From positions 186,001-250,000 of the forward strand of contig JBBPBK010000118.1 in assembly GCA_039720395.1 (NCBI GenBank): a stretch of DNA of 64,000 nucleotides, given 5' to 3'. Positions 1,200 to 29,162 of the stretch are shown one piece after another; within the stretch, counting starts at the first letter, position 1, and the number at the start of each line of letters is the position of its first letter. The notes beneath the pieces are model-generated. The model was not told where the DNA came from, did no database searches, and saw only the letters and a program-made list of their open reading frames with translations. A program made the translations under genes and the position numbers. This stretch comes from Liquidambar formosana. Taxonomy: Eukaryota > Streptophyta > Magnoliopsida > Saxifragales > Altingiaceae.

Positions 1200-3032
1200 G
1201 CTACATTCCTAAGAACAAATATATTTAGGAAGGCTCTTTGGGAGGAGTTAGGTGGGCTTTTTGGGTTGTGTAGTCCTAATTAGTGTCTTGGAGGTGATTT
1301 CAATGTCATCAGATTTATGACTGAGAAGTTGAATGGCTCTAGAAGGACAAGGAGCATGAAAGATTTTGATTCTTTTATTCATGAGTGTAATTTAAGAGAT
1401 CCTCCTCTTCACAATGCTTCCTTTACTTGGTCTAACCTCGAAGAGAGAGTGGTATGTAATAGACTAGATAGATTCCTTTTTTCTGCTACCTGGGAGGAGC
1501 TTTTCCCTAATGTTTTACAAGAGACTTTGCCTAGATTGACTTCGGATCACCATCCGATTGTTTTGGAGTCCAATCCTATTGTGTGGGGGCCTACCCCTTT
1601 TAGATTTGAGAACATGTGGCTCACTCATCACTCCTTTAAATCCTTTTTTGAGAATACTTGGAATGGTTGTTTGGTGCAAGGGTGGGAAGGGTTTAAATTT
1701 ATGAAAAAGCTTCAACTTGTGAAAAAAGACATTAAAGATTAGAATAAAAATATCTTTGGAGACATGAGACTTATTAAGGATTCTATTTCTAATCGTATCA
1801 GTTCTTTGGATGAGATGGAGAGTGAGGGTCAACTCATTGAGAATCTCAGAATGGAAAGAAGTAGGCTTAGGAAGAAATTAGAGGAGGTGAGTTTTAAGGA
1901 AGAAGTTAGTTGGAGGCAAAAGGCTAAGGTCAAATGGATAAAAGAATGAGATAATAATACCAAGTTGTTTCATAGAGTGGCTAATGGGAGGAGGAAAAAG
2001 AATATGACAAGAAGGATTGAGTTAGATTCTGGTGAAGTGATTGAAGATCCTAAGGAGATTGCTAAGGAGTTGGTTGACTTTTTTTCCCATTTGTATTCAT
2101 CTTCTAGGAATGATAGATGGAGGATTGAGGGTCTTGATTGGAGCCCTATTGATGATTCTAGTATGCTTTTGCTTGAGAAACCTTTCACTAAGATTGAGAT
2201 TAGAGAAGCTATCATTGAGTTGAGTAGGGACAAGTCCCCTGGGCCAGATGGTTTTACTATGGCTGTTTTTCAGGATTGTTGGGGGGTGATTAAGAAGGAT
2301 TTGTTAGCTGTTTTTAAGGAGTTTTATGATACTGGGGTGGTCAATAGTTGCACTAATGCCTCTTTCATTTGTCTTATTCCTAAGAAAGATAGATCCATAA
2401 AAGTCAAGGATTTTAGACCCATCAGTTTAGTCACAAGCCTTTATAAGATTATTGCCAAAGTTTTGTCGCATCGTCTTAGGGAGGTTCTTAGTGAGACCAT
2501 TACCAAAGCTCAAAGAGCTTTTGTTAAGGGAAGGCAAATTCTTGATGCAGTTCTTATTGCTAATGAGTTGGTGGAGGATTACAAGAAGAGAAAAAAGGAA
2601 GGTTTGATCTTTAAACTTGATTTTGAAAAGGCTTATGACCATGTTGATTGGAGTTTTCTTGACTATGTTCTTGAGAGGAAAGGTTTTGGAGAGAAATGGA
2701 GAGGTTGGATGAGAGGGTGTCTTAGGTCTATGAACTTTGCGGTGATGGTTAATGGGAGACCTAGAGGGTGGTTTGAAGCCTCTAGAGGTTTAAGACAAGG
2801 GTACCCTTTATCCCCTTTTCTTTTCACTTTGGTGGTTGATGTTCTGAGTAGACACCATAGTAAGGTTGAGGAGATGGGCATTATTAGAGGTTTTGAGGTT
2901 GGTAGGGAAAGAGTCAAGATTTCTCACCTCCAATTTGCTGATGATACAATCCTATTTCTTGGTGCAGATGAAGAGAATATGAGGGATTTGACCATTCTTG
3001 TCAGAGGTTTTGAGCTGCTTTCTGGTTTAAAG
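1200..3032 (+). pseudogene. LINE ORF2 5' part: endonuclease C-terminus and reverse transcriptase, inverted
   Basis: The plus strand encodes the end of an apurinic-type endonuclease (GGDFNVIR near 1285-1310; FTWSN, RLDRFLFS and SDHHPI at 1420-1560). It continues through a linker into a reverse transcriptase (1965-3032) with SPGPDGFT, DFRPISLV, KLDFEKAYD, GLRQGYPLSP and the catalytic FADD (about 2935-2946). Stops near 1741 and 1947 break the frame. The RT stops abruptly after LSGLK at about 3032, where the sequence becomes homologous (inverted) to the duplicated flank near 51850-51880, so 3032 is a genuine insertion boundary. The missing part between LSGLK and the minus-strand half is the deletion expected of twin-primed LINE insertions. 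Confidence 0.88.
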
Positions 3033-3541
3033 GAAATGTTAATCATAGTTGCAATAGTCTAATCATCGGTGTTTTGATTTGTTGGTGCGCACCTCATCTA
3101 TAAAAAAAACTTGTTTCAGGAAGCTACTCATCTCTGCAAGCTCTATGTACTTGTTTATTTCTAAAGGTCGGTTAATTGGGAATGAGTTACTTGCACCCTA
3201 CTTGACATTTTTTATTATTTTCAAGATCTTAAAAAGATACAAACAATTGCTAATCAAACCAAAAATAAAAAAGGGTTTTCTTAACGTGTAGCTACAATTA
3301 ATAACCCAATCATTACATGGAAAAATGTGTTTTCACAGTTTTTCAAACATTTTCACATTTTTCCAAACAACCTTCATCATTTTCAATGCAATGATTAAAT
3401 TATTAATTGTAACTTAACATGTGCCTTTAGAGCACATGTTAAGAAAACCCAATAAAAAATACAAACAATTGTGTCTATGTTTGCCATTTACCGGCAAAAA
3501 AAAAAAGTGTTTTGCCCTTGGTTCTAAAAGAGTGTTGTTAC

Positions 3542-9290: not shown

Positions 9291-9852
<562 letters not shown>

Positions 9853-10054
9853 CCCTTTTTTGGGTACTGCCCTATCCTTCTCTTGCATGATTAATGTTAG
9901 TTCTCATGTGTTTATGGTGAGGAGTATGCATCCTTCCGGTTATTACACAAGGAACATAATGTATTAATGTGTGTGGGTACGCAATTTCATGAAAGTGCCA
10001 CTCCTTTTTTAATTACATGCCCGTACATATATGTATGGGCGGCGATATGTGAAC

Positions 10055-10400
10055 TAGGGGTGCAAATCGGTCTAAAATACGTCCCGAATTGGTCCCGAAT
10101 TCAAATGGAAAAGACCATTTTCGTATAATCAATATTAGTTATTCCAATCTGATATCAAACCGATATCTGGTTTCTTAAAACCATATTTACTATTTAGGTT
10201 GTTGATATAGTGTAGCATGTTTTAAATAGGTTATGTGTTTTAATGATTATTTTATTTTACATGTGTTAAGTTTGAAGTTCATATTCTCATCTTCCCGTAG
10301 CTAGGTATAGTTATAGTTGTAGAATTTACATGTTTATCATATTTTGTTTGATATAAATAAATAAATAAATAAATAAATGCTTAAGGTCCTGTACTACTAA
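10055..10400 (+). repeat. hAT-like left terminal region outside the viral coding part
   Basis: This terminal segment begins TAGGGGTGCAAATCGG and holds no ORF. It includes an ATAAATAAAT microsatellite near 10353-10377 and leads to the viral primer-binding site. Its inverted mate is about 24670-25009, where the microsatellite is replaced by a T/C-rich run. Where transposon sequence stops and viral leader starts cannot be fixed by eye; it lies between about 10100 and 10415. Confidence 0.6.
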
Positions 10401-10414
10401 GCGTAGTTTGTTAA

Positions 10415-10426
10415 TGGTATCAGAGC
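10415..10426 (+). other. tRNA-Met primer-binding site of pararetrovirus arm A
   Basis: TGGTATCAGAGC matches the complement of the 3' end of plant initiator tRNA-Met, the minus-strand primer of all Caulimoviridae and conventionally nucleotide 1 of the genome. It lies 242 bp before the first long ORF. Confidence 0.9.
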
Positions 10427-10656
10427 GTCAGTAGTTTGTTAATTTATAGCTTTTTATCTGTTTGAGCCTGTTGTTAGTTTATTTATTCTTGTTTATTTGT
10501 TAAGTGTTTTAGTTGTTAGTTAAGTTATTTTTATTTATCTATAAACCCTAAGACAACTTTGATTAGGGAGTACCGAGGCCTTGACTTTGTTGAAAGGTAG
10601 CCAGTTGAGCTTGTGTCCTTTCGTTTGAGTCAGCAACTTTGTAGGAAAACCTAGTC

Positions 10657-13600
10657 ATGGAAGAATTAGGGTGCGTAGGTAAGAAAAATAATCAGACTAA
10701 TGATTATAAACATTTAGCACATGTACAAGATAAAGATGCTAATGTAGGCAATATTAGCAGAACGTTAAATTATGTTGTAGATAATCTATCTGGTATGTTT
10801 AGTAAATTAGTAAATATTGAGAAAAATCAAGAAAAAATATATGATAAAGTTAATATGTTAGGTGAGATACAAAATATAGACCTAAAGGATGAAACAAAAA
10901 GTTTAATCCAAAGTCTAGAAAATAATCTGAAAAATAATTCAGATAATTTACTTGTACTAAAAGAAAATACTTGTGAAGAAATTCCAAGATTATATTTTGG
11001 AACTGAAATAATGATGTTTAAAACTGATAAACATCGAAAAGACTTTGAAGCTATCAAAGAAATTTTAGAATATTGGAAAACCCGATATATAAAAGAAGAA
11101 AATTACGATGAACGTAATAAACTTCTAAAACAAATGCAAGAATTGTATTCAGCCAATGAAGAATTAATGACTGAATATAATTATGACTTAGCCCTTCAAT
11201 TAGAAGAGTCAAGTGAATCAGATAAAGAATCTGATATAACTTTCATGCCAAACAGTGTTCAAGAAGAAAGTTCAAAAGATGACGAGCCAGAACTAGAAGG
11301 TAGAAAATTTGGCCTGTCATCAAGTGATAACAATACTGGAAGTACAAGTAGTACTTCAGTTGATAAAGAAATAATCATTGAAAAAGAAAACAATGATGAC
11401 ACAAACAATAATAATGACCCTCAAGACTCTAAAAAAAGAAAAGAGATTGAGACGGATGAAGAAGAAAAATTAATTCCTAGAGGTCAAAGGTATAATTTTG
11501 AATCACCTATATTTGATATCTATGATGACCTTGATGATGATGACCTGATGCAAATTGAAGATTTAAAACCTTTAAAAGATGAAGGTTCCACATCAGAACC
11601 TGCACCTACAACAAGCATAAGGACTGATTTAAACAAAATCAATGTCACTACAGGAGGTGTTTATCTCGACTTAAAAAATGTCGAATTTAAAAATTATGAT
11701 CAAGCTTTAAGAGAATGGGCACAATCTATGTCTATTGTCATTAATACCTATAAAAGCAGCTGGTCTAAAGAAAGATTTTTAGACTACATCTGTGCAACTC
11801 TCCAAGGAGATTGCTTAAACTTCCTTAGAACATGGGAAGCTTCTGATGAAGGTAAACATGAAAAAGCTAGTTTACTTAATGAATTTAATTCATTTGATAA
11901 AATATTAAATGAATTTGCACAAATTCTAAGAAGAGAATTTTGTGGAATTAAATTTGAAGAACAGGAAGAAATTTACAATGAGTATATGCTAACAAAATGT
12001 AGAATATGCAATATTTGTGAATTTAAATCCTTTGAAAATTTTATCAGGAATATTACCATAAACTTAACCCACCAAAAACTGAGTTTTGGTTAAGTCAATT
12101 TTTCCATAAGTTACCCTCACCATGGGATGAACTTTGTAAAGATGGATATAAAGAATTCTTGAGTAGTTCTAATGGTGGAAAAGACACGTTAGGAGCAAGA
12201 ATTCAATACGCTGAAAGAATTATAATTAAACACTGCATAACACAAAAAGCTGTTAAGCAAGTGAAAAATCAACTTAATGATAAGTGTTGTAGCAAAGTGA
12301 TGCGACAACAATGGGAATTTGGTTGTAAAAAATCAACCCCTTATAAGAAAAGGAGAAAATTCAGAAAATATAAATTTGTCAAATGGAAAGGTAAAAAACC
12401 TAATCCTAATAAAAAATATGTCAGAAAAAGAAATCGAAACACTACGTTTAGAAGAAAATCTAAATGTAAATGCTATATCTGTAATGAAGAAGGTCATATA
12501 GCACCACAATGCCCTAAGAAAGGAAAGAGTGGTAGACAAATGATAAAATTTCTAGAGGAAAAACAACTAGAAATTTTAGTTGGAGAAGAAGTCTCTGACA
12601 ATGATTCTATAATTTATGAGGTTCAATCAGAATCTGAAAGTGAAAGTGAAAGTGAAGATGAATCAGACATGATATTCATGATGTCTGAAAGAAATGAAAA
12701 TAAAGAAATTTTTGAAGCAATTCCAAACGAGGAATTACAACTCATAAAATTAGGAGATGTCATAGGTGAAGAAGCATCTATAGACGAATCTAATTTTGAG
12801 AAATTTAATAAAATCAAAGAAGTTAAAAAAGAAGAGCTTTACCAAATATCAAAATTTAATATTTGGCAAGCAAGATTATTTGAACAATTTAGTGGAAATA
12901 CATCTGCTAAAGCTACTGAGGATGAATCGATAGAAATCCCTCTATTCGATAAAAACAAAATTAAAAGACTTAAACAAAAGCATCCAAAGATTCGATATAT
13001 TCATATTGGAATTATTCAAATTGAAATCACAGCTCTATTTAGAGTAGGATTAGACACTCCTATTCTAGTAGTAGTCTTGGATAAAAGATTTGAAAATCCT
13101 ATTAAAGCACTAATAGGTGGAATACAATCAAATCTTGTTTATGGACAAGTCTGGTTTAAAATAAAACCAAATTATTTTATATCAATTGAAGATCCAAATA
13201 TTTGTGACAGGATAAAAATTCGTATCCAAACTAAAGGAATTAATATGAAGAAAAATAGTTATAATTTATCAGTTCAATGGAAAGCAATCCATGAACTAAC
13301 AAATTTTACTAAAACTTCAATTAAAGAAATTGATAGAAATATGATCGAATTATTCGAACCACGAGTATTCGATACTGAAATCCAACCAAGATTAATAAAT
13401 TGGAAAGATTTGGAAATACCAAAAAGCTGGTTAATAAAAGAATTTACAGAAAATGCTAAGCCAAAATTCTATAAACCAATAGAATTCCAAGCATCAAGAA
13501 ATAATCTTTATTTCACTGATAATCGCCGGAATAATATTATTAAACGATGGATCAACATCAACATCTAAAACAGATGAACAAGATGAAAAGGAAAAAGCAA

Positions 13601-15615
13601 TTGCAATAAAAAAAGTGCAAATACCCATACTTCCAGGTACAACCTACCTTGAAGAACAAAAATCTGTAGTATTCCAACAGATCAAAATTGATGGTAAATA
13701 CCCAGAACAATTAATCTTTAGTTATCAACAAGGTAAGAAAAGATATATGTATGTTCTAGGAAAATTCAATTTCAAAAACTATAAACCATATGTTTTATCT
13801 ATTCTATTAGATACCGGAGCAACAACCAGTGCTGCTAGGTATAATGCATTACCTGAGCATTTATGGATAAAAATGAAAAATCCAATATCTGCAAGAGGTA
13901 TTGATGGAAATGAAACTTTAATTATTCTCAAAGCTAAAAATGTTACGCTTTGGTTAGGAGATAAAAAATTCTCTATCCCTAAAATCCTTTGTTTCCCAGA
14001 TATGCATGGTGATGTAATATTAGGAAATAATTTCATTGAAAATTATATGCCTTTTATTGTCAATCGTGACCATGTTATTCTAACTTGTAAACAAGAACCA
14101 GTTAGAATTCCTCTTTTACAACATCATAAACATGTTTGTGAAAAAGGACTTGCGCCAGTCAAGCGTGGTGAAATGACACCAATAATCAAATCTTTAGATG
14201 AAAAACATTGGATTTATAAAAAATTACATCCAAACTTTTCTAAAGACCCATTAAAACTTTGGGAAAAATCTCCCAGGTTTTGTGAATTAAAACTCATTGA
14301 TTCCAATAAAATAATTAGAGTAAAACCAATGGTCTATACTAAAAAAGATATAGATGAATTTGAAATTCAACTCGAAGAATTACTTAAGAAAGGATTAATT
14401 GAAGAAACAAGAAGTCAACATTCTAGTCCTGCCTTTATGGTAATGAACTATAATGAGATAAAACGAGGAAAAGCTAGAATGGTAATTAATTATAAAAGAT
14501 TAAACCAGAATCTTGAATTTGATGGATATTTTATTCCTAGAAAAGATGTTCTAGTTAAACAGACTATGAACTCTAAATGGTTTAGCAAATTTGATTGCAA
14601 ATCAGGCTTTTGGCAAGTAAAGCTTACAGATGAGTCAAAACCATTGACTGCATTCAGTGCACCATATGGACATTACCAATGGACGGTTATGCCATTTGGA
14701 ATTTGTAATGCACCACAAATATTTCAAAGATGGATGGACAACATGTTCAAACATCTTCATAAATTTTGTTTAGTATATATTGATGATGTTTTAGTATTCT
14801 CTAAAACCATAGAAGAACATAAAAAGCATCTTGAAATTGTATCAGATATATTCCTAAAACATGGAATAATATTAAGTCCTAAAAAGATGGAAATAGAAAA
14901 AGAAGAAATTGAATATTTAGGAGTAATTCTAAACCAATCAGGCATGCAACTCCAAAATCATATTATTGTTAAAATAAGAGATTTTCCAAATGAGATAACA
15001 ACTCTCAAAGAACTGCAGAGTTTTTTAGGTTTATTAAATTATGGAAGAAAATTCGTAAAGAATTTATCTAAAAAGGAAAAACCTTTAATTGAAAAACTTA
15101 AGAATATTCCTAAAAAAGGAAATTCAGATATAAAAATAGAATGGACTAAAAAAGATTCAGATTTAGTTCAAGAAATTAAAAATATGTTTAAAGATACCCC
15201 AAAGGTTTATTTTCCAAAAGAAAATGACCAATTAATTCTAGAAACCGATGCTAGTGATGAGTTTTGGGGAGCGGTATTAAAAGCAATCCCAAAAAATTCT
15301 AAACAAGAAGAAATCTGTGGATATGATTCAGGAAAATTTAAACCTAATGAAATAAAATACATAACTTATGAAAAAGAATTATTAGCCATAAAAAATGGAA
15401 TAAAAAGATTTCATATTTATTTGGCACCTGTTAAAATTTTAATCCGTACTGATAACAAATCAGTTAGAGATTTTATTAAATCCAAAAAAGGAGAAGAAAA
15501 TGCGAGACGAGTAAGATGGTATAATTTTATTTGTCAATATACTTTTGATATAATACATATTAAGGGTACTAACAATTTTCTTGCTGATTATCTGTCCAGA
15601 AGCTACAATGAATAA
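10657..15615 (+). pseudogene. Endogenous caulimovirid polyprotein, arm A (CP-MP-AP-RT-RNase H), frame-broken
   Basis: A degenerate pararetroviral polyprotein. In order: an acidic, coiled-coil-like N-terminus; a coat-protein region with a CCHC zinc knuckle (C-x2-C-x4-H-x4-C, 12471-12513); a 30K-type movement-protein core (about 12980-13330, with GLDTPI and a conserved YGQVWFKI stretch); a pepsin-type protease DTGA (13810-13821); reverse transcriptase with YIDD (14776-14787); and RNase H (ETDASDEFWGAVL, about 15240-15280). The order coat before movement protein differs from badnaviruses and petuviruses and recalls solendoviruses (from memory, not checked). The frame is broken near 12037 and near 13535, where arm B is differently spaced. 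The protein ends at 15615 and overlaps the next ORF start. Confidence 0.9.
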
Positions 15616-16973
15616 TCAGAATCCGGACAGAGGGAAAAAAACCCTCAAATTCTCAAGGAAAGAATTATGGGAAACCATCCCGATTCTACAAAGGCGAAGG
15701 AAGCTCAAACCAGAGCAGCTTTCCCAGACTTCCTCAGATCATGGGTAACCAACCCAATGTTCCAGTTTATGTGATGCCAGTCAGCTATAAACAAATGGCT
15801 AAAATGTCTTAGAGCTTTAACCAAATGAATTTTCAAAATCATCCTGAAACAAATCAGGAGATAAAAGATTTTTATAACCCAGGTTTAAACCCAAAAACCT
15901 ATCATCTTTTAAATAATATTTGGAAAACTCATTGCTTAAACCATAAAGCTGAGTTTAGAAGAAATATGTCCCAACTTGCTGAATTCTTGAAAACACAAGA
16001 AGATAAGCAAACTTTTATTCATTCTTAATTTGCCAAGTTCATTAAACAAGTGGATTGGCTTGAAGATTTTTCTGAAGAAAAAATTACTACTATTATTAAT
16101 TTGATGAATTTTACTGAACAACAGGAAAATTCATACCTTAACAAAGCTTTAAGGATTTGTTTATTCAATAAAGCTAAAACAGCTTTACCAAAAGAAATAT
16201 TTTCTGATATTAATGTTCGCATTGAAAACAATGAGATTAAACCTCTTCTCATTGAATTTGCTGAAAATAGTTATTTGGAAAAAGAAATTCCAAAGTTGAA
16301 ATTTTTCATAAACCATGAGCTTTGGAGTATGGAAGCAATTGGTTGGAGAGCCGTCGGAACAATCATCTTCGACTCTTTGGTATCCACTGCATTTGTTGAC
16401 TTTCCCGCAATGATCAAAACAATGATCTATAATGTGGTGAAACACTACAAATGGAGTAGATATTTGAAATTCAAAATTTTTAGTCATGCAGGATGGCGAC
16501 AGAGAGAACTGTTTTTTCAACCATACCAAATCTGGAGCCTAGAACTTGCAAATGATCAAGATCTCATAAAAAATGAAGATCTTAAATTTTTGGATAAAGC
16601 AGAAAATCTTGATTTATCCTCTTATTATATAGATAATTATATTGCTCTAAAAAGATAAGCACAAAACATCCACAACTATCGCTCCTACAAATTCATGATC
16701 AGCGATGGGAGGAGATTGTTCTGCACAAATCTGATCACTTCTTATGTGGAGACAGTTGCTCAAAGAATGGCAGCTGATGAGTTTCTTAATAATATTATCC
16801 ATGGCCATGTTATCGGTCCTATTGAATTAACAATGGATGCGGAAGAGCTGGTGGGCGCACAAGATTATAATGAAAATATTGTTAGCCATAATCAAGAAGA
16901 TAATGGTGACAGTTTCTGGAATTCTCTCGATGAAGAGACACTTCACAATATCGAGAATATGATGGAAGGATAG
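15608..16973 (+). pseudogene. Second viral ORF, arm A, multiply broken
   Basis: The ATG at 15608 overlaps the polyprotein stop (AATGAATAA), typical of caulimovirid ORF coupling. The protein has a polar, Gly/Ser/Asn-rich start and then a mostly helical region rich in Lys, Phe and Trp, ending at 16973 with an acidic tail (NIENMMEG). I see no TAV/inclusion-body signature and do not assign a function; the position fits the TAV-type ORF of other caulimovirids. Lesions: a one-base difference in the A-run near 15640, an in-frame TAG at 15810-15812, a TAA near 16026 shared with arm B, and another stop near 16656. Clearly non-coding now. Confidence 0.8.
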
Positions 16974-17140
16974 GGGCCAGCCAGGCAACATCCAGAAATT
17001 CTGCAGAATTGGACACGTATAACAAATACTTCCAATATTCAACAATCAAAGGACATGACGTGATATGCAGCATTCATTTAGTCTGACACTTTTAAAAGAA
17101 GACAAAGACTTTTGAAGGCTCAATCATAATCAGTGACAGA

Positions 17141-17342
17141 ATCACGTGATACGGTGAAGGAAAGAAGAACCTAGCCTCACTTTTTTATTTCAAAGTCAAA
17201 AAGTGTACAGTGTAAAGTATGTAACATGTTTTTAATAGGGTTGTTGGGTAGTTGAATGTAATTATTGTACTTTTGATTCTTATCTTTTGTTTTTGTGTTG
17301 TGTTTATGTCCAGGCTTGAAGTCCGAAGTTTGTCTATAAATA
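17141..17342 (+). promoter_or_regulatory. Putative pregenomic RNA promoter, arm A
   Basis: TATAAATA at 17335-17342 lies after the last viral ORF, where caulimovirids place their full-length-transcript promoter. Upstream is a palindromic ATCACGTGAT with a G-box core CACGTG at 17141-17150. Downstream is a purine-rich leader (GAGAGTTGGATAGAG...) up to the arm end at 17491. In this inverted arrangement transcription would run into arm B. Confidence 0.6.
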
Positions 17343-17491
17343 GATGAGTCCTTCAGTTGTTTAGGTAGAGTTAGAGAGTTGGATAGAGTTCTCAGAGAGT
17401 TTTAGTAAGAAAGAGTCTGTATAGAGAGAGAGCTTTGCTGAAGAAGAAATTTTTGTAAGTTTTCTTTATTCTTGTATATCTTTTGTAATTA

Positions 17492-17561
17492 ATACCAGCT
17501 ATACAAAATACGTATAAAGACAAAAATACGATATTTACAAAAATACCTTACATTTTATTAA
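17492..17561. other. Central spacer of the 15-kb palindrome
   Basis: About 70 bp between the inverted arms (arm A ends in TTTTGTAATTA, arm B begins TAATTACAAAA). It starts ACCAGCTATACAAAATACGT and is not itself an inverted repeat. It may be a leftover of viral leader, transposon interior or filler DNA. It would be the loop of any hairpin formed by the arms. Confidence 0.85.
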
Positions 17562-17710
17562 TAATTACAAAAGATATACAAGAATAAAGAAAACTTACAA
17601 AAAGTTCTTCTTCAGCAAAGCTCTCTCTCTATACAGACTCTTTCTTACTAAAACTCTCTGAGAACTCTATCCAACTCTCTAACTCTACCTAAACAACTGA
17701 AGGACTCATC

Positions 17711-17912
17711 TATTTATAGACAAACTTCAGACTTCAAGCCCGGACTTAAACACAACACAAAAACAAAAGATAAGAATCAAAAGTACAATAATTACATTCA
17801 ACTACCCAACAACCCTATTAAAAACATGTTACATACTTTACACTGTACACTTTTTGACTTTGAAATAAAAAAGTGAGGCTAGGTTCTTCCTTCCTTCACC
17901 GTATCACGTGAT
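17711..17912 (-). promoter_or_regulatory. Putative pregenomic RNA promoter, arm B
   Basis: Mirror copy of the arm A promoter: TATTTATA on plus at 17711-17718 (TATAAATA on minus) and the ATCACGTGAT palindrome near 17903-17912. Transcription would leave the palindrome centre towards arm A, so the two promoters are convergent. Confidence 0.6.
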
Positions 17913-18079
17913 TCTGTCACTGATTATGACTGAGCCTTCAAAAGTCTTTGTCTTCTTTTAAAAGTGTCAGACTAAATGAATGCTGCATATCACGTCATGT
18001 CCTTTGATTGTTGAATATTGGACGTATTTGTTATACGTGTCCAATTCTGCAGAATTTCTGGATGTTGCCTGGCTGGCCC

Positions 18080-19443
18080 CTATCCTTCCATCATGTTCTC
18101 GATATTGTGAAGTGTCTCTTCATCGAGAGAATTCCAGAAACTGTCACCATTATCTTCTTGATTATGGCTAACAATATTTTCATAATAATCTTGTGCGCCC
18201 ACCAGCTCTTCCGCATCCATTGTTAATTCAATAGGACCGGTAACATGGCCATGGATAATATTATTAAGAAACTCATCAACTGCCATTCTTTGAGCAACTG
18301 TCTCCACATAAGAAGTGATCAGATTTGTGCAGAACAATCTCCTTCCATCGCTGATCATGAATTTGTAGGAGCGATAGTTGTGGATGTTTTGTGCTTCTCT
18401 TTTTAGAGCAATATAATTATCTATATAATAAGAAGATAAATCAAGATTTTCTGCTTTATCCAAAAATTTAAGACCTTCATTTTTTATGAGATCTTGATCA
18501 TTTGCAAGTTCTAGGCTCCAGATTTGGTATGGTTGAAAAAACAGTTCTCTCTGTCGCCATCCTGCATGACTAAAAATTTTGAATTTCAAATATCTACTCC
18601 ATTTGTAGTGTTTCACCACATATAGATCATTGTTTTAATCATTGCGGGAAAGTCAACAAATGCAGTGGATACCAAGGAGTCGAAGATGATTGTTCCGACG
18701 GCTCCCCAACCAATTGCTTCCATACTCCAAAGCTCATGGTTTATGAAAAATTTCAACTTTGGAATTTCTTTTTGCAAATAAATATTTTTAGCAAATTCAA
18801 TGAGAAGAGGTTTAATCTCATTGTTTTCAATGCGAACATTAATATCAGAAAATATTTCTTTTGGTAAAACTGTTTTAGCTTTATTGAATAAACAAATCCT
18901 TAAAGCTTTGTTAAGGTATGAATTATCCTGTTGTTCAGTAAAATTCATCAAATTAATAATAGTAGTAATTTTTTCTTCAGAAAAATCTTCAAGCCAATCC
19001 ACTTGTTTAATGAACTTGGCAAATTAAGAATGAATAAAAGTTTGCTTATCTTCTTGTGTTTTCAAGAATTCAGCAAGTTGGGACATATTTCTTTTAAACT
19101 CAACTTTATGGTTTAAGCAATGAGTTTTCCAAATATTAGTTAAAAGATGATAGGTTTTTGGGTTTAAACCTGGGTTATAAAAATATTTTATCTCCTGATT
19201 TGTTTTAGGATGATTTTGAAAATTCATTTGGTTAAAGCTCTGAGACATTTCAGCCATTTGTTTATAGCTGACTGGCATCACATAAACTGGAACATTGGGT
19301 TGGTTACCCATGATCTGAGGAAGTCTAGGAAAGCTACTCTGGTTTGAGCTTCCTTCGCCTTTGTAGAATCGGGATGGTTTCCCATAATTCTTTCCTTGAG
19401 AATTTGAGGGTTTTTTCCCTCTGTCCGGATTCTGATTATTCAT
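18080..19443 (-). pseudogene. Second viral ORF, arm B, broken
   Basis: Mirror of 15608-16973. The start at 19443 overlaps the polyprotein stop. The first part reads to a TAA just after FIHS near 19024-19026, the same position as in arm A. The frame then continues (VDWLEDF..., 19002) and shifts near 18615-18640 by a base difference from arm A, ending at 18080. It keeps sense codons where arm A has private stops (15810 and 16656 equivalents). Function unassigned; no recognisable catalytic motif. Confidence 0.8.
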
Positions 19444-22400
19444 TGTAGCTTCTGGACAGATAATCAGCAAGAAAATTGTTAGTACCTTTAATATGTATTA
19501 TATCAAAAGTATATTGACAAATAAAATTATACCATCTTACTCGTCTCACATTTTCTTCTCCTTTTTTGGATTTAATAAAATCTCTAACTGATTTGTTATC
19601 GGTACGGATTAAAAATTTAACAGGTGCTAAATAAATATGAAATCTTTTTATTCCATTTTTTATGGCTAATAACTCTTTTTCATAAGTTATGTATTTTATT
19701 TCATTAGGTTTAAATTTTCCTGAATCATATCCACAGATTTCTTCTTGTTTAGAATTTTCTGGGATTGCTTTTAATACTGCTCCCCAAAACTCATCACTAG
19801 CATCGGTTTCTAGAATTAATTGGTCATTTTTTTTTGGAAAATAAACCTTTGGGGTATCTTTAAACATATTTTTAATTTCTTGAACTAAATCTGAATCTTT
19901 TTTAGTCCATTCTATTTTTATATCTGAATTTCCTTTTTTAGGAATATTCTTAAGTTTTTCAATTAAAGGTTTTTCCTTTTTAGATAAATTCTTTACAAAT
20001 TTTCTTCCATAATTTAATAAACCTAAAAAACTTTGCAGTTCTTTGAGAGTTGTTATCTCATTTGGAAAATCTCTTATTTTAACAATAATATGATTTTGGA
20101 GTTGCATGCCTGATTGGTTTAGAATTACTCCTAAATATTCAATTTCTTCTTTTTCTATTTCCATCTTTTTAGGACTTAATATTATTCCATGTTTTAGGAA
20201 TATATCTGATACAATTTCAAGATGCTTTTTATGTTCTTCTCTGGTTTTAGAGAATACTAAAACATCATCAATATACACTAAACAAAATTTATGAAGATGT
20301 TTGAACATGTTGTCCATCCATCTTTGAAATATTTGTGGTGCATTACAAATTCCAAATGGCATAACCGTCCATTGGTAATGTCTATATGGTGCACTGAATG
20401 CAGTCAATGGTTTTGACTCATCTGTAAGCTTTACTTGCCAAAAGCCTGATTTGCAATCAAATTTGCTAAACCATTTAGAGTTCATAGTCTGTTTAACTAG
20501 AACATCTTTTCTAGGAATAAAATATCCATCAAATTCAAGATTCTGGTTTAATCTTTTATAATTAATTACCATTCTAGCTTTTCCTCGTTTTATCTCATTA
20601 TAGTTCATTACCATAAAGGCAGGACTAGAATGTTGACTTCTTGTTTCTTCAATTAATCCTTTCTTAAGTAATTCTTCGAGTTGAATTTCAAATTCATCTA
20701 TATCTTTTTTAGTATAGACCATTGGTTTTACTCTAATTATTTTATTGGAATCAATGAGTTTTAATTCACAAAACCTTGGAGATTTTTCCCAAAGTTTTAA
20801 TGGGTCTTTAGAAAAGTTTGGATGTAATTTTTTATAAATCCAATGTTTTTCATCTAAAGATTTGATTATTGGTGTCATTTCACCACGCTTGACTGGCGCA
20901 AGTCCTTTTTCACAAACATGTTTATGATGTTGTAAAAGAGGAATTCTAACTGGTTCTTGTTTACAAGTTAGAATAACATGGTCACGATTGACAATAAAAG
21001 GCATATAATTTTCAATGAAATTATTTCCTAATATTACATCACCATGCATATCTAGGAAACAAAGGATTTTAGGGATAGAGAATTTTTTATCTCCTAACCA
21101 AAGCGTAACATTTTTAGCTTTGAGAATAATTAAAGTTTCATTACCATCAATACCTCTTGCAGATATTGGATTTTTCATTTTAATCCATAGATGCTCAGGT
21201 AATGCATTATACCTAGCAGCACTGGTTGTTGCTCCGGTATCAAGTAAGATAGAAAAAACATATGGTTTATAGTTTTTAAAATTAAACTTTCCTAGAACAT
21301 ACATATATCTTTTCTTACCTTGTTGGTAACTAAAGATTAGTTGTTCTGGATATTTTCCATCAATTTTAATCTGTTAAAATACTACAGATTTTTGTTCTTC
21401 AAGGTAGGTTGTACCTAGAAGTATGGGTATTTGCACATTTTTTATTGCAATTGCTTTTTCCTTTTCATCTTGTTCATCTTTTTTAGATGTTGATGTTGAT
21501 CCATCGTCTAATAATTTTATATTATTCCGGCGATTATCAGTGAAATAAAGATTATTTCCTGATGCTTGGAATTCTATTGGTTTATAGAATTTTGACTTAG
21601 GATTTTCTGTAAATTCTTTTATTAACCAATTTCTTGGTATTTCCAAATCTTTCCAATTTATTAATCTTGGTTGGATTTCAGTATCGAATACTCGTGGTTC
21701 GAATAATTCGATCATATTTCTATCAATTTCTTTAATTGAAGTTTTAGTAAAATTTGTTAGTTCATGGATTGCTTTCCATTGAACTGATAAATTATAACTA
21801 TTTTTCTTCATATCAATTCCTTTAGTTTGGATACGAATTTTTATCGTGTCACAAATATTTGGATCTTCAATTGATATAAAATAATTTGGTTTTATTTTAT
21901 ACCAGACTTGTCCATAAACAAGATTTGATTGTATTCCACCTATTAGTGCTTTAATAGGATCTTCAAATCTTTTATCCAAGACTACTACTACAATAGGAGT
22001 GTCTAATCCTACTCTAAATAAAGCTGTGATTTCAATTTGAATAATTCCGATATGAATATATCGAATCTTTGGATGCTTTTGTTTAAGTCTTTTAATTTTG
22101 TTTTTATCGAATAGAGGGATTTCTATCGATTCATCCTCAGTAGTTTTAGCAGATGTATTACCACTAAATTGTTCAAATAATCTTGCTTGCCAAATATTAA
22201 ATTTTGATATTTGGTAAAGCTCTTCTTTTTTAACTTCTTTGATTTTATTAAATTTCTCAAAATTAGATTCGTCTATAGATGCTTCTTCACCTATGACATC
22301 TCCTAATTTTATGAGTTGTAATTCCTCGTTTGGAATTGCTTCAAAAATTTCTTTATTTTCATTTCTTTCAGACATCATGAATATCATGTCTGATTCATCT

Positions 22401-24397
22401 TCACTTTCACTTTCACTTTCAAATTCTGATTGAACCTCATAAATTATAGAATCATTGTCACAGACTTCTTCTCCAACTAAAATTTCTAGTTGTTTTTCCT
22501 CTAGAAATTTTATCATTTGTCTACCACTCTTTCCTTTCTTAGGGTATTGTGGTGCTATATGACCTTCTTCATTACAGATATAACATTTACATTTAGATTT
22601 TCTTCTAAACGTAGTGTTTCGATTTCTTTTTCTGACATATTTTTTATTAGGATTAGGTTTTTTACCTTTCCATTTGACAAATTTATATTTTCTGAATTTT
22701 CTCCTTTTCTTATAAGGGGTTGATTTTTTACAACCAAATTCCCATTGTTGTTGCATTACTTTGCTACAACACTTATCATTAAGTTGATTTTTCACTTGCT
22801 TAACAGCTTTTTGTGTTATGCAGTGTTTAGTTATAATTCTTTCAGCATATTGAATTCTTGCTCCTAACGTATCTTTTCCACCATTAGAACTACTCAAGAA
22901 TTCTTTATATCCATCATTACAAAGTTCATCCCATGGTGAGGATAACTTATGGAAAAATTGACTTAACCAAAACTCAGTTTTTGGTGGGTTAAGTTTATGG
23001 TAATATTCTTGATAAAATTTTGCAAAGGATTTAAATTCACAAATATTGCATATTCTACATTTTGTTAGCATATACTCATTGTAAATTTCTTCCTGTTCTT
23101 CAAATTTAATTCCACAAAATTCTCTTCTTAGAATTTGTGCAAATTCATTTAATATTTTATCAAATGAATTAAATTCATTAAGTAAACTAGCTTTTTCATG
23201 TTTACCTTCATCAGAGGCTTCCCATCTTCTAAGGAAGTTTAAGCAATCTTCTTGGAGAGTTGCACAGATGTAGTCTAAAAATCTTTCTTTAGACCAACTA
23301 CTTTTACATGTGTTTATGACAATAGACATTGATTGTGCCCATTCTCTTAATGCTTGATCATAATTTTTAAATTCGACATTTTTTAAGTCGAGATAAACAC
23401 CTCCTGTAGTGACATTGATTTTGTTTAAATCAGTCCTTATGCTTGTTGTAGGTACAGGTTCTGATGTGGAACCTTCATCTTTTAAAGGTTTTAAATCTTC
23501 AATTTGCATCGGGTCATCATCATCAAGGTCATCATAGATATCAAATATAGGTGATTCAAAATTATACCTTTGACCTCTAGGAATTAATTTTTCTTCTTCA
23601 TCCGTCTCAATCTCTTTTCTTTTTTTAGAGTCTTAAGGGTCATTATTATTGTTTGTGTCATCATTGTTTTCTTTTTCAATGATTATTTCTTCATCAACTG
23701 AAGTACTACTTGTACTTCCAGTATTGTTATCACTTGATGACAGGCCAAATTTTCTACCTTCTGGTTCTGGCTCGTCATCTGAACTTTCTTCTTGAACACT
23801 GTTTGGCATGAAAGTTATATCAGATTCTTTATCTGATTCACTTGACTCTTCTAATTGAAGGGCTAAGTCATAATTATATTCAATCATTAATTCTTCATTG
23901 GCTGAATACAATTCTTGCATTTGTTTTAGAAGTTTATTACGTTCATCGTAATTTTCTTCTTTAATATATCGGGTTTTCCAATATTCTAAAATTTCTTTGA
24001 TGACTTCAAAGTCTTTTCGATGTTTATCAGTTTTAAACATCATTATTTCAGTTCCAAAATATAATCTTGGAATTTCTTCACAAGTATTTTCTTTTAGTAC
24101 AAGTAAATTATCTGAATTATTTTTCAGATTATTTTCTAGACTTTGGATTAAACTTTTTGCTTCATCCTTTAGGTCTATATTTTGTATCTCACCTAACATA
24201 TTAACTTTATCATATATTTTTTCTTGATTTTTCTCAATATTTACTAATTTACTAAACATACTAGATAAATTATCTACAACATAATTTAACGTTCTGCTAA
24301 TATTGCCTACATTAGCATCTTTATCTTGTACATGTGCTAAATGTTTATAATCATTAGTTTGATTATTTTTCTTACCTACGCACCCTAATTCTTCCAT
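19436..24397 (-). pseudogene. Endogenous caulimovirid polyprotein, arm B, two nonsense codons
   Basis: Mirror of the arm A polyprotein from the ATG at 24397 to the stop at 19436, with the same domain order. It has fewer frameshifts: movement-protein and coat regions are in one frame (23509-21374). It is interrupted by TAA at 23633-23635 (acidic N-terminal region) and TAA at 21374-21376 (between movement protein and protease); arm A has CAA at both sites. The last Cys of the zinc knuckle is replaced by Tyr (about 22544-22546). RT YIDD and protease DTGA are kept. The lesions are typical of neutral decay after endogenisation. Confidence 0.9.
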
Positions 24398-24627
24398 GAC
24401 TAGGTTTTCCTACAAAGTTGCCGACTCAAACGAAAGGACACAAGCTCAACTGGCCACCTTTCAACAAAGTCAAGGCCTCGGTACTCCCTAATCAAAGTTG
24501 TCTTAAGGTTTATAGATAAATAAAAATAACTTAACTAACAACTAGAACACTTAACAAATAAACAAGAATAAATAAACTAACAACACGCTCAAACAGATAA
24601 AAAGCTATAAATTAACAAACTACTGAC

Positions 24628-24639
24628 GCTCTGATACCA
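24628..24639 (-). other. tRNA-Met primer-binding site of arm B
   Basis: GCTCTGATACCA on plus, i.e. TGGTATCAGAGC on minus, in the same relation to the polyprotein start as in arm A. Confidence 0.9.
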
Positions 24640-25017
24640 TTAACAAAACTACCGCTCAGTAGTACAGGACCTTAAGCCTTTTTTCTTTTCTTTTTTTTAT
24701 ATCAAACAAAATATGATACACATGTAAATTCTACAATTATAACTATACCAAGCTACGGGAAGATGAGAATATAAACTTCAAACTTAACACATGTAAAATA
24801 AAATAATCATTAAAACACATAACCTATTTAAAACATGCTACACTATATCAACAACCTAAATAGTAAATATGGTTTTAAGAAACCAGATATCGGTTTGATA
24901 GCGGATTGGAATAACTAATATTGATTATATGAAAATGGTCTTTTCCATTTGAATTCGGGACCAATTCGGTACCAATTCGGGACGTATTTTGGACCGATTT
25001 GCACCCCTAATGTGAAC

Positions 25018-26275: not shown

Positions 26276-26914
26276 TATAGATATATAATATACACTCGTA
26301 ATAGTAGTTTAGATGGCAAAGAATCACGGCTCAGGAATCAAATTTCGAGTTCATGTCTTCGTTCCCTCATTATCGAATGCATAGACTTGCGAATGATTTG
26401 TGCATCATGTGAGATTAGTTTGGGCTTAACGGTTTGAGATATCCCTTATTTGGTAAAAATGTATTTGAACAATTTTTTAAATACTTTTATAGTTTTGTAA
26501 GTAATTTGTACCATTTTCTATGCTTTTTTACCGTTTCCATATAATGATTATCTTCTTAATTATAACTTAAGGGCACATGTTAAGGATATTATCAATCAAC
26601 TTGCTACAAATTTGTATACGGGTTTTAAAATGACTACCAATTTCTTTTGTTTGCTATCTAGTTGGGAAGTGAGAAAGGGAGAAAGAAAAGTTTAGAGAGA
26701 GAGAGAGAATGGGTGGAGCAAAGAGAGAATGAAAAGAAGATAAGAGAACATATAGATCTTTTTAATTTTAGGTAATAAACCATCTGAAGAATTTGATTAA
26801 AATATTTTTTTTTTCGTCGAAGATAGATCGGGAGAATTTGAAGATTTCGACATGTCGTTTTTTTTGTAATCATTTTTTCTTCTAACTATCTCTCTTTCTT
26901 ATTATAACTATTTA

Positions 26915-27563
26915 TAGGGGTGGTCACGGGTCGGGTGGGTGCGGGTTTGGGGTTCATCCGTCACCCGCCCACATCTTGACGGGTGAACTAAATTCACACC
27001 CACTTCCGCCCACACAGGCGAGCGGTTTTGACCCACATAACACATCTGGTTGTGGGTGGATTGCGGGTGGGTCTACGGGTTGGGATTTTAGTTGGATCTT
27101 GTTGGGTTTTTTCCCAATTTTTTTTTTCCCTCCTTAATTTGGCCATACCATTTTATATCTTAAAAACACAAAAAGAAAAAGAAGACAAAGGGATAAATAA
27201 TTCAAGACATATGTTGATTATATATATATATATAGATATATAGATAGAAAGAGGGAGAAAGAGCACGAACAGTAAAATAAAAATTATAAAACATATATTG
27301 ATACTTAAAAAAGAAATAAAAGTCAAGAATCGATAATATACCATCACATGTAACATGTATAATTTAATAAGTATGAAAATATGCGGGTGGGTGGGTTTGA
27401 ATCAGTTTTTTTCTTTCAAAACCGCGAACCATCCACGAAACCGCAAAAAAATAAAATCCTAAACCACTACCCACCCACTTCATCGGTTGAATCCGCCCAA
27501 TGCCTTCGGATAGAGTCGGATTGGGCGGTTTTCGCGGGCCGAGCGGATCCATGAACACCCCTA
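26915..27563. mobile_element. hAT non-autonomous element (TAGGGGTG...CACCCCTA), 8-bp TSD
   Basis: 649 bp. The ends are exact 8-bp inverted repeats identical to those of the 10055-25009 composite. ACTATTTA is duplicated at 26907-26914 and 27564-27571. The edges are rich in GGGTGGGT/ACCCACCC. There is no transposase. Nested inside the Helitron. Confidence 0.88.
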
Positions 27564-29162
27564 ACTATTTATAATTTTATACGTTCAATTTTTTGGAGAG
27601 AAGATGAATAGGTATAAAGAAAACGAATAAATATGATAGTTTACAAAGTTTGGGATGAATATTGTATAATATAGGTTTTTCAATTCTCTCACATAAAGAC
27701 AAAGAGATATATGATGAATACCAAACGACAATTTACTTGCATGAAAAAAAGTAGTGAATACCAAAAAAAAGTTTTTCCTCAAAAAACTTTTGGTTGGTAT
27801 TAAAATAGAAAGTGGTCACTGAAAAGGCAATTTCCTCAAAAGTCACTAAAAGTAACTTTTTGAAAAAATTATGTTTTAGTGATCAACTTTCAATGTAATA
27901 TGAAAAAAATAAATTAGTAGTCATTTCACGCATGTATATAGTTAAGTTGTAGCAAGTTGATAGGTTACATCCTTTATTGGTATTAAGTTATAAAAGGATC
28001 ACCAAAAGGTAATTTTTCAAAAAAAATTCACTATTGAGCATCTGATTTAAAAAAAAAAAAATCAAAAAAAGGGAACTGACGCGTGGCAGAGCTACAGGAG
28101 GACTTTCCTCCATTTTAGTATATATATAATAGATGTCCAACTAAAACAACAAAAAGCATTTTGGACAACTATACCCTTATCTGGTTACATTTCAACTATA
28201 GGTGTGGGACCCATAATCTATCTCTCTTCCTTCTCATCCCGTCTCTCTCTCTCTCTCCTCTCTTCCTTCTTTTTCTCTTCCCTCTCTTTTCTTTTTTCTC
28301 TTGTTTTTTGTTCTGCAGACTCTCTCCCTTCGTCGGCAACAAGTAAACCATGATCCAAAGGTGGGTTGATGGAATAGGGTCGTTAAAAATTTGGGAAGCT
28401 TTGGTGGCTTCTAGTTTTATTGTGGGTTTCAAGATCTACCATAGCAACCATGATCCAAATCCCCATGAATCTGAAGCTCGACTCCATGGGCATGGTAAGA
28501 AGATCACCCAACAGGACAACAATGAATCTGAACGCGGGTGTTGGGGTTGGCTACTGCCGGCCACATACGAGGATGAGGAGAGAAAGGGGAGAACACTCAG
28601 AACTGTGGGGTTTCAAACCAGTCGCCGACGGTGGTAAGGAGGGAAGGGGGAGAACGGTGGCGGCGTGTTTGGTGGATCTGAACGGGTGGATTTAATGGTA
28701 ACGGTGGCGGCGGATCTGATGGAACTCGTCGTCGCCGGCGTTCAGATCTGGGTTGGGTGAAATTATTTTATTTTAATTTTGAAAATTTTTTGTGTTAAAG
28801 GATGGTTATTGTTGGCCATTTGTTGAGGATGAGGAGAGAAGGGGGAGTGGGATGGCGGGGTTTTAGTCGCCGACGGTGGGGTTTTTGTCGCCGACGTCAC
28901 CATCAGAGAATGGGAAACAAAAATTAAATTAGAAATTTTAAAAAGAAGTAAGAAGAAGAAGACCTATTTGAGAAGTCTAGCCGGAAAAAATGGAGTTGGC
29001 CGGAGCTCATATGTTTCTTCCAAATGAGATGTAACAGGAGGATAAGGGTATAGTTGTCCAAAACACTTTTTGCTGTTTTAGTTGGGCATTATAAAAAAAT
29101 TGGTGGAGTTCAAGGTTTTTGACAAACTATAAGATTTTTCTGGACAAATGCCCTTTAAAAAT

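What the first reader, a model, noticed from the sequence alone, without database searches (positions are those of the whole stretch)
10047..25017. Two endogenous pararetroviruses packaged as one hAT-type transposition unit
Seen: a 15-kb imperfect palindrome whose extreme ends are TAGGGGTG/CACCCCTA, with ATGTGAAC duplicated exactly on both sides. Known: hAT transposons make 8-bp duplications, and caulimovirids have no integrase, so their insertions normally lack such a signature. A second element in the window (26915-27563) has identical 8-bp ends and its own 8-bp duplication. Inference: a hAT system in trans moved a non-autonomous element whose cargo is two inverted, near full-length viral genomes. 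If true, this is a route for dispersing endogenous viral DNA by DNA transposition. I know of no described case, but I could not search.
Basis: partly seen in the sequence, partly recalled or inferred. Interest (0 to 1): 0.93.

Follow-up and report, generated by a model that had tools for sequence, protein, structure and literature searches.

The report
Virus inserted as transposon-ended mirror pairs
This plant genome holds copies of a virus that appear to have entered the chromosomes as two mirror-image genomes joined end to end and pasted in by jumping-gene machinery, which would be a way for a virus without an integrase to integrate.

Summary
Window 10055-25009 is two caulimovirid genomes in mirror image, ends TAGGGGTG/CACCCCTA, with an exact 8-bp duplication. 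It is one of a family: of 41 end matches in the host assembly (40 of 152 candidates scored), 30 pair into 15 elements. All 15 have exact, mutually different 8-bp duplications fitting the hAT target nTnnnnAn (P = 5e-5).

The mirror axis differs in 12 of 12 readable elements, yet 18 of 24 arm ends stop at the same base. The two arms are sisters in 14 of 15 elements. Differences between elements are mostly synonymous (63 N:181 S; movement-protein domain 1:22); between the arms of the 12 least diverged elements they look neutral (55 N:21 S). So the lineage evolved as a working virus and the pairs formed anew.

Best reading: a virus with one hAT end per genome; two genomes join into an integrable unit. 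Neither the transposase nor the monomer junction was found, because genome search answered only once.

The parts
10047..10054 (.). left copy of the 8-bp target duplication ATGTGAAC
10055..10414 (+). left outer end, hAT-like tip TAGGGGTG plus about 360 bases up to the primer-binding site
10055..17491 (+). left arm: one near-complete viral genome, about 69 bases shorter at the axis than the right arm
10415..10425 (+). tRNA primer-binding site TGGTATCAGAG (name recalled)
10645..12093 (+). open frame 482 aa, no Pfam match; probably N-terminal part of the coat region (inference)
12036..13568 (+). frame with weak coat-protein match, zinc knuckle and viral movement protein
13483..15615 (+). aspartic protease, reverse transcriptase, RNase H
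16029..16658 (+). 209-aa frame without match; position suggests a transactivator-like protein (inference)
17335..17340 (+). TATA-like box, directed toward the axis
17492..17492 (.). mirror axis: one extra base between the shortened left arm and the right arm end TACCAGC
17493..25009 (-). right arm: second viral genome, inverted
19436..21373 (-). right-arm protease, RT and RNase H frame
21374..23632 (-). right-arm weak coat match and movement-protein frame
24640..25009 (-). right outer end with tip CACCCCTA
25010..25017 (.). right copy of the target duplication ATGTGAAC

Best explanation
A pararetrovirus lineage (Caulimoviridae) carries ONE hAT-type transposon end in its genome, probably in the leader just upstream of the tRNA primer-binding site. 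A hAT transposon needs two ends, so a single viral DNA cannot be inserted as a transposon, but two can. Step 1 (inferred): host hAT transposase, supplied in trans, cuts viral circles at TAGGGGTG, leaving the transposon end on one side and the flank ...TATAGCTGGTA on the other, which in hAT chemistry would be a hairpin. Step 2 (outcome seen): two flank ends are joined tail to tail, each time anew, by loose end joining, giving a mirror dimer with a hAT tip at both ends. Step 3 (outcome seen): the dimer is inserted with an 8-bp nTnnnnAn duplication. Step 4 (seen): after insertion the arms of most copies decay neutrally, whereas before insertion the lineage evolved as a working virus. Most dimers joined near-identical genomes; at least one (C6b), perhaps three, joined two different ones.
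For: 15 of 15 two-ended elements have exact, different 8-bp duplications; T2 in 11 and A7 in 10 of 15, P = 5e-5, as reported for Hermes (PMC10368747, passages). 12 of 12 axes differ while 18 of 24 arm ends stop at the same base. Arms sister in 14 of 15 (outer 3 kb) and 10 of 11 (RT piece). Between elements N:S 63:181; between arms of 12 elements 55:21; Fisher P = 5e-13. Movement-protein domain 1:22. Outer end co-varies with the rest (Mantel r 0.60, P = 0.006). Three single-arm copies with an exact TAGGGGTG tip run into non-viral DNA at or near the inner end, two after short mirror letters as an opened hairpin would leave. hAT hairpins on donor flanks: PMC2803484, passages.
Against: No transposase gene and no monomer copy with ...GCTGGTA next to TAGGGGTG was found: the search machine answered only, so this is untested rather than negative. 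By raw distance, C102, C4c and C6b arms are not each other's nearest (12 of 15 are). Counting all elements, arm-to-arm N:S is 151:150, far from neutral; it becomes neutral only after setting aside the three most diverged elements, a split made after seeing the data. The tips are identical on both sides, whereas Hermes has two dissimilar ends (PMC10368747, passages). The outer end is more diverged than the rest (0.033 against 0.019). Predicted pairing of inner and outer ends was not above shuffles.
Confidence: 0.65

Rival explanations
1. The mirror dimers form during viral replication or repair without transposase (fold-back second-strand synthesis by RT, or end joining of linear viral DNA), and hAT transposase performs only the last step because the dimer happens to have two suitable tips.
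For: The inner end TGGTA equals the first five bases of the primer-binding site, the natural gap of caulimovirid DNA (gap recalled). Axis inserts look like ordinary end joining. Explains identical arms equally well.
Against: It leaves unexplained why the outer end of every two-ended element is the tip TAGGGGTG (one point mutation), and of the three single-arm copies too, unless the tip is cut by transposase or is a natural viral end.
Confidence: 0.22
2. One ancestral double-virus element with hAT tips was dispersed by hAT transposase, and its arms were later homogenised by gene conversion and its centre revised by breakage.
For: Tips, duplications, non-autonomous anatomy. Gene conversion between palindrome arms and centre-break revision are known processes (recalled). 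The window copy, C4c, C4b, C6b and C1 show losses near or at the centre.
Against: Purifying selection between elements, with 1:22 in the movement-protein domain, is not expected of passively moved cargo. 12 of 12 axes differ while most ends are untrimmed. The C6b arms belong to different lineages. The closest pairs C369/C10 and C14/C137 do not share an axis.
Confidence: 0.08
3. Assembly artefact: mirror reads or haplotype joins produced the palindromes.
For: Palindromes are a known long-read artefact (recalled); raw reads were not available. One insertion is present on two contigs (C137 and C2:45612366).
Against: 15 loci, each with an exact duplication outside both tips and unlike those of the others; arms up to 2.3% different; axis letters that differ from copy to copy.
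Confidence: 0.01

Closest known systems
Endogenous caulimovirids (EPRVs)
   Same: Caulimovirid protein domains and primer-binding site in plant chromosomal DNA; nearest RT relatives are a sequence contig and plant-genome copies in Cornus and Gossypium, 54-58% identical (7994 candidates scored, 120 of 282 listed).
   Different: Exact 8-bp duplications, fixed tips and mirror dimers. The review PMC10377300 (section 3.1 in full) describes (TA)n flanks, tandem arrays and rearrangements and calls the mechanism speculative.
Non-autonomous hAT transposons
   Same: TAGGGGTG tips, 8-bp nTnnnnAn duplications; an ordinary hAT-like element with the same 8-bp tips lies at 26915-27563.
   Different: Each half is a viral genome with its own history of selection; the axis is new in each readable copy; proposed to be built from two one-ended molecules.
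Teratorn (herpesvirus fused to a piggyBac-like transposon; PMC10175614, start of abstract and two passages; PMC5822658, listing only)
   Same: A virus whose chromosomal insertion goes through DNA-transposon machinery.
   Different: By recall Teratorn carries its own transposase and two ends; here there is one end per genome, no transposase domain found, dimers, another virus family and another transposon superfamily.
hobo/Hermes circles (PMC2803484, abstract and passages)
   Same: Extrachromosomal hAT DNA that can integrate with nTnnnnAn duplications.
   Different: Those circles carry both ends of one transposon.
Inverted-repeat EPRVs of tomato (as told in PMC10377300, passage) and Foldback-type elements (recalled)
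   Same: Nearly the whole element is inverted repeat.
   Different: Here the arms are near-complete viral genomes with past protein selection, inserted with hAT-type duplications, and the axis differs from copy to copy.

Membership tests
Caulimoviridae (endogenous) | movement protein, A3-type protease, RT and RNase H of caulimovirid type | tested here: met
   Pfam matches in both arms; RT relatives are caulimovirids and plant-genome copies
Caulimoviridae (endogenous) | no integrase | tested here: met
   no integrase or transposase domain in the 8 of 10 element frames scanned
Caulimoviridae (endogenous) | tRNA-Met primer-binding site | tested here: met
   TGGTATCAGAG at 10415; motif meaning recalled
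Caulimoviridae, a named genus | groups with a named genus | tested here: not met
   RT tree of 29 chosen sequences: sits with plant-genome and contig sequences (support 0.986), no named virus in that clade
hAT superfamily element (non-autonomous) | 8-bp target duplication | tested here: met
   15 of 15 two-ended elements exact
hAT superfamily element (non-autonomous) | target preference nTnnnnAn (Ac/Hermes type) | tested here: met
   T2 11 of 15, A7 10 of 15, both in 6 of 15; P = 5e-5
hAT superfamily element (non-autonomous) | short terminal inverted repeats of hAT type | tested here: met
   TAGGGGTG tips; same octamer on a separate 649-bp element with its own 8-bp duplication; hAT character of the octamer recalled
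hAT superfamily element (non-autonomous) | mobilised by a hAT transposase in the same genome | not tested
   searches for PF05699 and for the tip sequence did not complete (pattern requests)
Teratorn-like virus-transposon fusion | transposase encoded within the element (recalled) | tested here: not met
   no transposase domain in 8 of 10 element frames

The most novel reading that the evidence does not exclude
A 'half-transposon virus': a plant pararetrovirus lineage with a single functional hAT end in its leader, for which the host's hAT transposase serves as integrase, acting on pairs of genomes so that the excision footprint becomes the mirror axis and the pair becomes a complete transposon.
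Probability: 0.55. Interest if true: 0.96.

Novelty: new variant of a known kind. Interest (0 to 1): 0.92.

Why it matters
How caulimovirids, which have no integrase, enter plant chromosomes is called speculative in a 2023 review (PMC10377300, section 3.1). Here is a family with a clean, testable transposase signature. It would give a third route beside break repair and retrotransposon help, explain why these insertions are mirror dimers, offer a dating clock (arms mostly alike at insertion, like LTRs), and show a host transposon enzyme acting as a virus integrase. Mirror-image insertions are also expected sources of double-stranded RNA, so they bear on small-RNA immunity.

Tried and rejected
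Leader-hairpin argument: complementarity between the inner 72 and outer 75 bases of one copy is no better than in shuffles (36% of 500 as good); dropped. Viral contigs: the RT protein found no relative; the 16-base tip pattern hit 5 contigs, which I judged to be chance level by a rough estimate and did not examine. The 209-aa frame at 16029 has no match in Pfam (E up to 0.01) or PHROGs, and in the PDB only one at E = 0.7. No RNA family at the gathering threshold in the window. Ten other frames of the window show no transposase domain. Single-ended hits: 10 of the 41 matches had no partner. One (C2:45612366) is the same insertion as C137 on another contig (99.7%). Six were probed at arm length: three run into non-viral DNA at or near the inner end, three gave no viral match there. 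Four of these six were also probed with 401-base pieces at 15 kb, no partner there. Three were not followed. Whether the three single-arm copies are one-ended insertions or dimers that lost an arm is not settled. Paper searches bearing on prior description; none of the listed titles and abstract starts describes a hAT-integrated pararetrovirus, but lists were capped (20 of 44, 12 of 48 and 15 of 1191). Searches (tip string, 15 of 536 listed; hAT target consensus) served other questions. The library holds no preprints and lacks most subscription papers.

Full report
WHAT IS THERE. Window 10055-25009 is a mirror-image pair of caulimovirid genomes. The tips are TAGGGGTG and CACCCCTA, and ATGTGAAC stands once on each side. 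The arms are 97.8% identical over 7463 aligned bases. Each arm, read inwards, has about 360 bases with a hAT-like tip, a tRNA primer-binding site (10415; 24629 in the right arm), a weak coat-protein match, movement protein, protease, RT and RNase H; the left arm also shows a zinc knuckle, an unassigned frame and a TATA-like box toward the axis. In this copy the left arm lacks about its last 69 bases, while the right arm reaches its end TACCAGC.

A FAMILY. The window lies in a 718-Mb assembly of 370 contigs. Its left 366 bases have 41 matches there (40 of 152 first-look candidates scored, so a lower bound). Thirty of the 41 pair into 15 two-ended elements, one is a second piece of one end, and 10 are single. 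Names and places (contig:first-last): C102 = window; C3 10472427-10487445; C6a 9436479-9451512; C14 17087114-17102137; C369 295503-310556; C4a 4136380-4151394; C6b 9479989-9494943; C9a 1682965-1698020; C4b 41007375-41021998; C9b 20102079-20117101; C137 19789-34855; C10 17858111-17873246; C258 162636-184621; C4c 43051955-43069788; C1 14310440-14320073. Both tips of all 15 were fetched (window). All 15 have an exact 8-bp duplication and the 15 differ from one another; one tip has a single mutation, TCGGGGTG. T stands at position 2 in 11 and A at position 7 in 10 of 15 (both in 6), P = 5e-5 against local composition. That is the nTnnnnAn preference reported for Hermes (PMC10368747, passages; PMC2803484, passages). 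Twelve elements are 14.6-15.1 kb long; C1 is 9.6 kb (centre lost), C4c 17.8 kb and C258 22.0 kb.

EACH PAIR WAS MADE ANEW. The axis could be read on both sides in 12 elements. All 12 differ, with 0 to 10 inserted bases, one joined over a 2-base overlap. Yet 18 of the 24 arm ends stop at the same base...TATAGCTGGTA, and the other six are trimmed by 1-5 bases. C4b and C6b have further losses or rearrangements just outside the axis. The window copy and C4c have one intact end and one shortened arm; the C1 axis is lost. In a tree of the outer 3 kb, arms of the same element are sisters in 14 of 15 (12 with support at or above 0.95; C102 and C369 0.40); by raw distance 12 of 15 are each other's nearest, C102, C4c and C6b not. 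In the RT piece they are sisters in 10 of 11. Arm-to-arm divergence is 0-0.84% in 12 elements and 2.0-2.3% in C102, C4c and C6b. One old palindrome spread by cut-and-paste would rather give left-with-left clades and shared axes. Even the closest pairs (C369/C10, C14/C137, about 0.5% apart) have different axes, so I saw no copying of a finished dimer among these.

A WORKING VIRUS BETWEEN INSERTIONS. Changes between elements (both arms agreeing) are 63 nonsynonymous to 181 synonymous over three coding stretches (15 elements for two, 11 for RT), about 0.12 of neutral. Between the arms of all elements the count is 151 to 150 (sum). I then set aside the three most diverged elements, a split made after seeing the data: in the other 12 (9 of them for RT) it is 55 to 21, about 0.92 of neutral, and differs from the between-element count at Fisher P = 5e-13. 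In the three set aside, letters that both occur in other elements are 29 to 79, the rest 67 to 50. RT sites that vary between elements fall 19, 5 and 77 on codon positions 1, 2 and 3. In the movement-protein domain the count between 13 elements is 1 to 22 (C1 and C4c left out). So the proteins, including the one needed for spread between cells, were maintained before insertion. The RT frame is still open over at least 640 residues in 16 of 22 arms. At a recalled rate of 7e-9 per site per year, the 12 elements date from 0 to about 0.6 million years; rough.

ONE GENOME OR TWO. In C6b the arms are not sisters in either tree. Differences for which both letters occur in other elements are largely synonymous (46 S: 17 N). 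Its arms therefore probably diverged under selection before they were joined. C102 (25 S: 8 N) and C4c (8 S: 4 N, outer piece only) show the same trend, but the C102 arms are sisters in the RT tree, so for them this is a suggestion. The other 12 could be two molecules of a near-clonal infection or one hairpin-ended molecule unfolded.

WHERE THE hAT END SITS. The outer 375 bases co-vary with the following viral sequence (Mantel r 0.60, P = 0.006, 12 elements), though they are more diverged (0.033 against 0.019). So they seem to have travelled with the viral genome. If the circle joins ...GCTGGTA to TAGGGGTG, the leader from the supposed start site to the primer site would be about 555 bases, usual for caulimovirids (my estimate and recall). 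This junction was not seen in any copy. Axis letters such as AGT recur in several copies and may be a few further leader bases.

SINGLE ARMS. Three single-ended copies on C2 have an exact TAGGGGTG tip and an inner end that runs into non-viral DNA, two of them after short mirror letters (TACCAG, TACC), as left when a hairpin is opened off-centre. Loss of the second arm just beyond the axis is the alternative.

MECHANISM. hAT transposases leave hairpins on the donor flanks (PMC2803484, passages). Applied to viral circles with one end each, this yields linear genomes with one transposon end and one hairpin flank. Joining two flanks, the same repair that heals an ordinary donor site, gives a dimer with both ends, and inserting it gives the observed duplication. 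Seen: tips, duplications, axis diversity, selection before and, in 12 elements, neutrality after insertion. Inferred: transposase cut of the circle, hairpins, identity of the transposase.

KNOWN OR NEW. By content these are endogenous caulimovirids; by tips they are hAT-like elements; virus-transposon hybrids exist (Teratorn, PMC10175614, start of abstract and passages). [quoted passage not shown] Seven paper searches (lists partly capped) listed nothing of this arrangement. I rate it a new variant of a known kind because the enzyme is not identified; the half-transposon reading, if right, has no precedent that I know of.

LIMITS. The genome search machine answered once. Not done: census of all copies, hAT partner, monomer junction, empty sites.

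Noticed in passing
26907-27571: A separate 649-bp hAT-like element (26915-27563) with TAGGGGTG/CACCCCTA tips and duplication ACTATTTA; its subterminal sequence differs from that of the virus, so it shows only that a hAT family with the same octamer exists here.
   Followed up: partly
17335-18300: The TATA-like box of the left arm points toward the axis, so transcripts would run into the other arm as antisense; a likely source of double-stranded RNA.
   Followed up: no
9722-9828: An AT dinucleotide tract lies about 220 bases left of the insertion; the review PMC10377300 says such tracts often flank endogenous caulimovirids.
   Followed up: no
L101, L103 (C2:922308 and C2:19245297 copies): Single-arm copies whose inner end carries a few mirror letters and then non-viral DNA, as an opened hairpin would leave.
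   Followed up: partly
C2:45612366 (L025) and C137 (L022, L046): The same insertion on two contigs, 99.7% alike with flank, but the C2 copy departs from the arm after about 1.1 kb; C137 may be a second haplotype.
   Followed up: partly
52354-53296 and 53834-54762: Another inverted repeat of about 0.95 kb, 93% identical, with about 540 bases between; not identified.
   Followed up: no
1284-3062: LINE-like remains: weak endonuclease match and a reverse transcriptase frame.
   Followed up: no
10403-10443: GTAGTTTGTTAAT stands directly before the primer-binding site (10403) and again just after it (10431), a possible trace of the event that placed the hAT-like end there.
   Followed up: no
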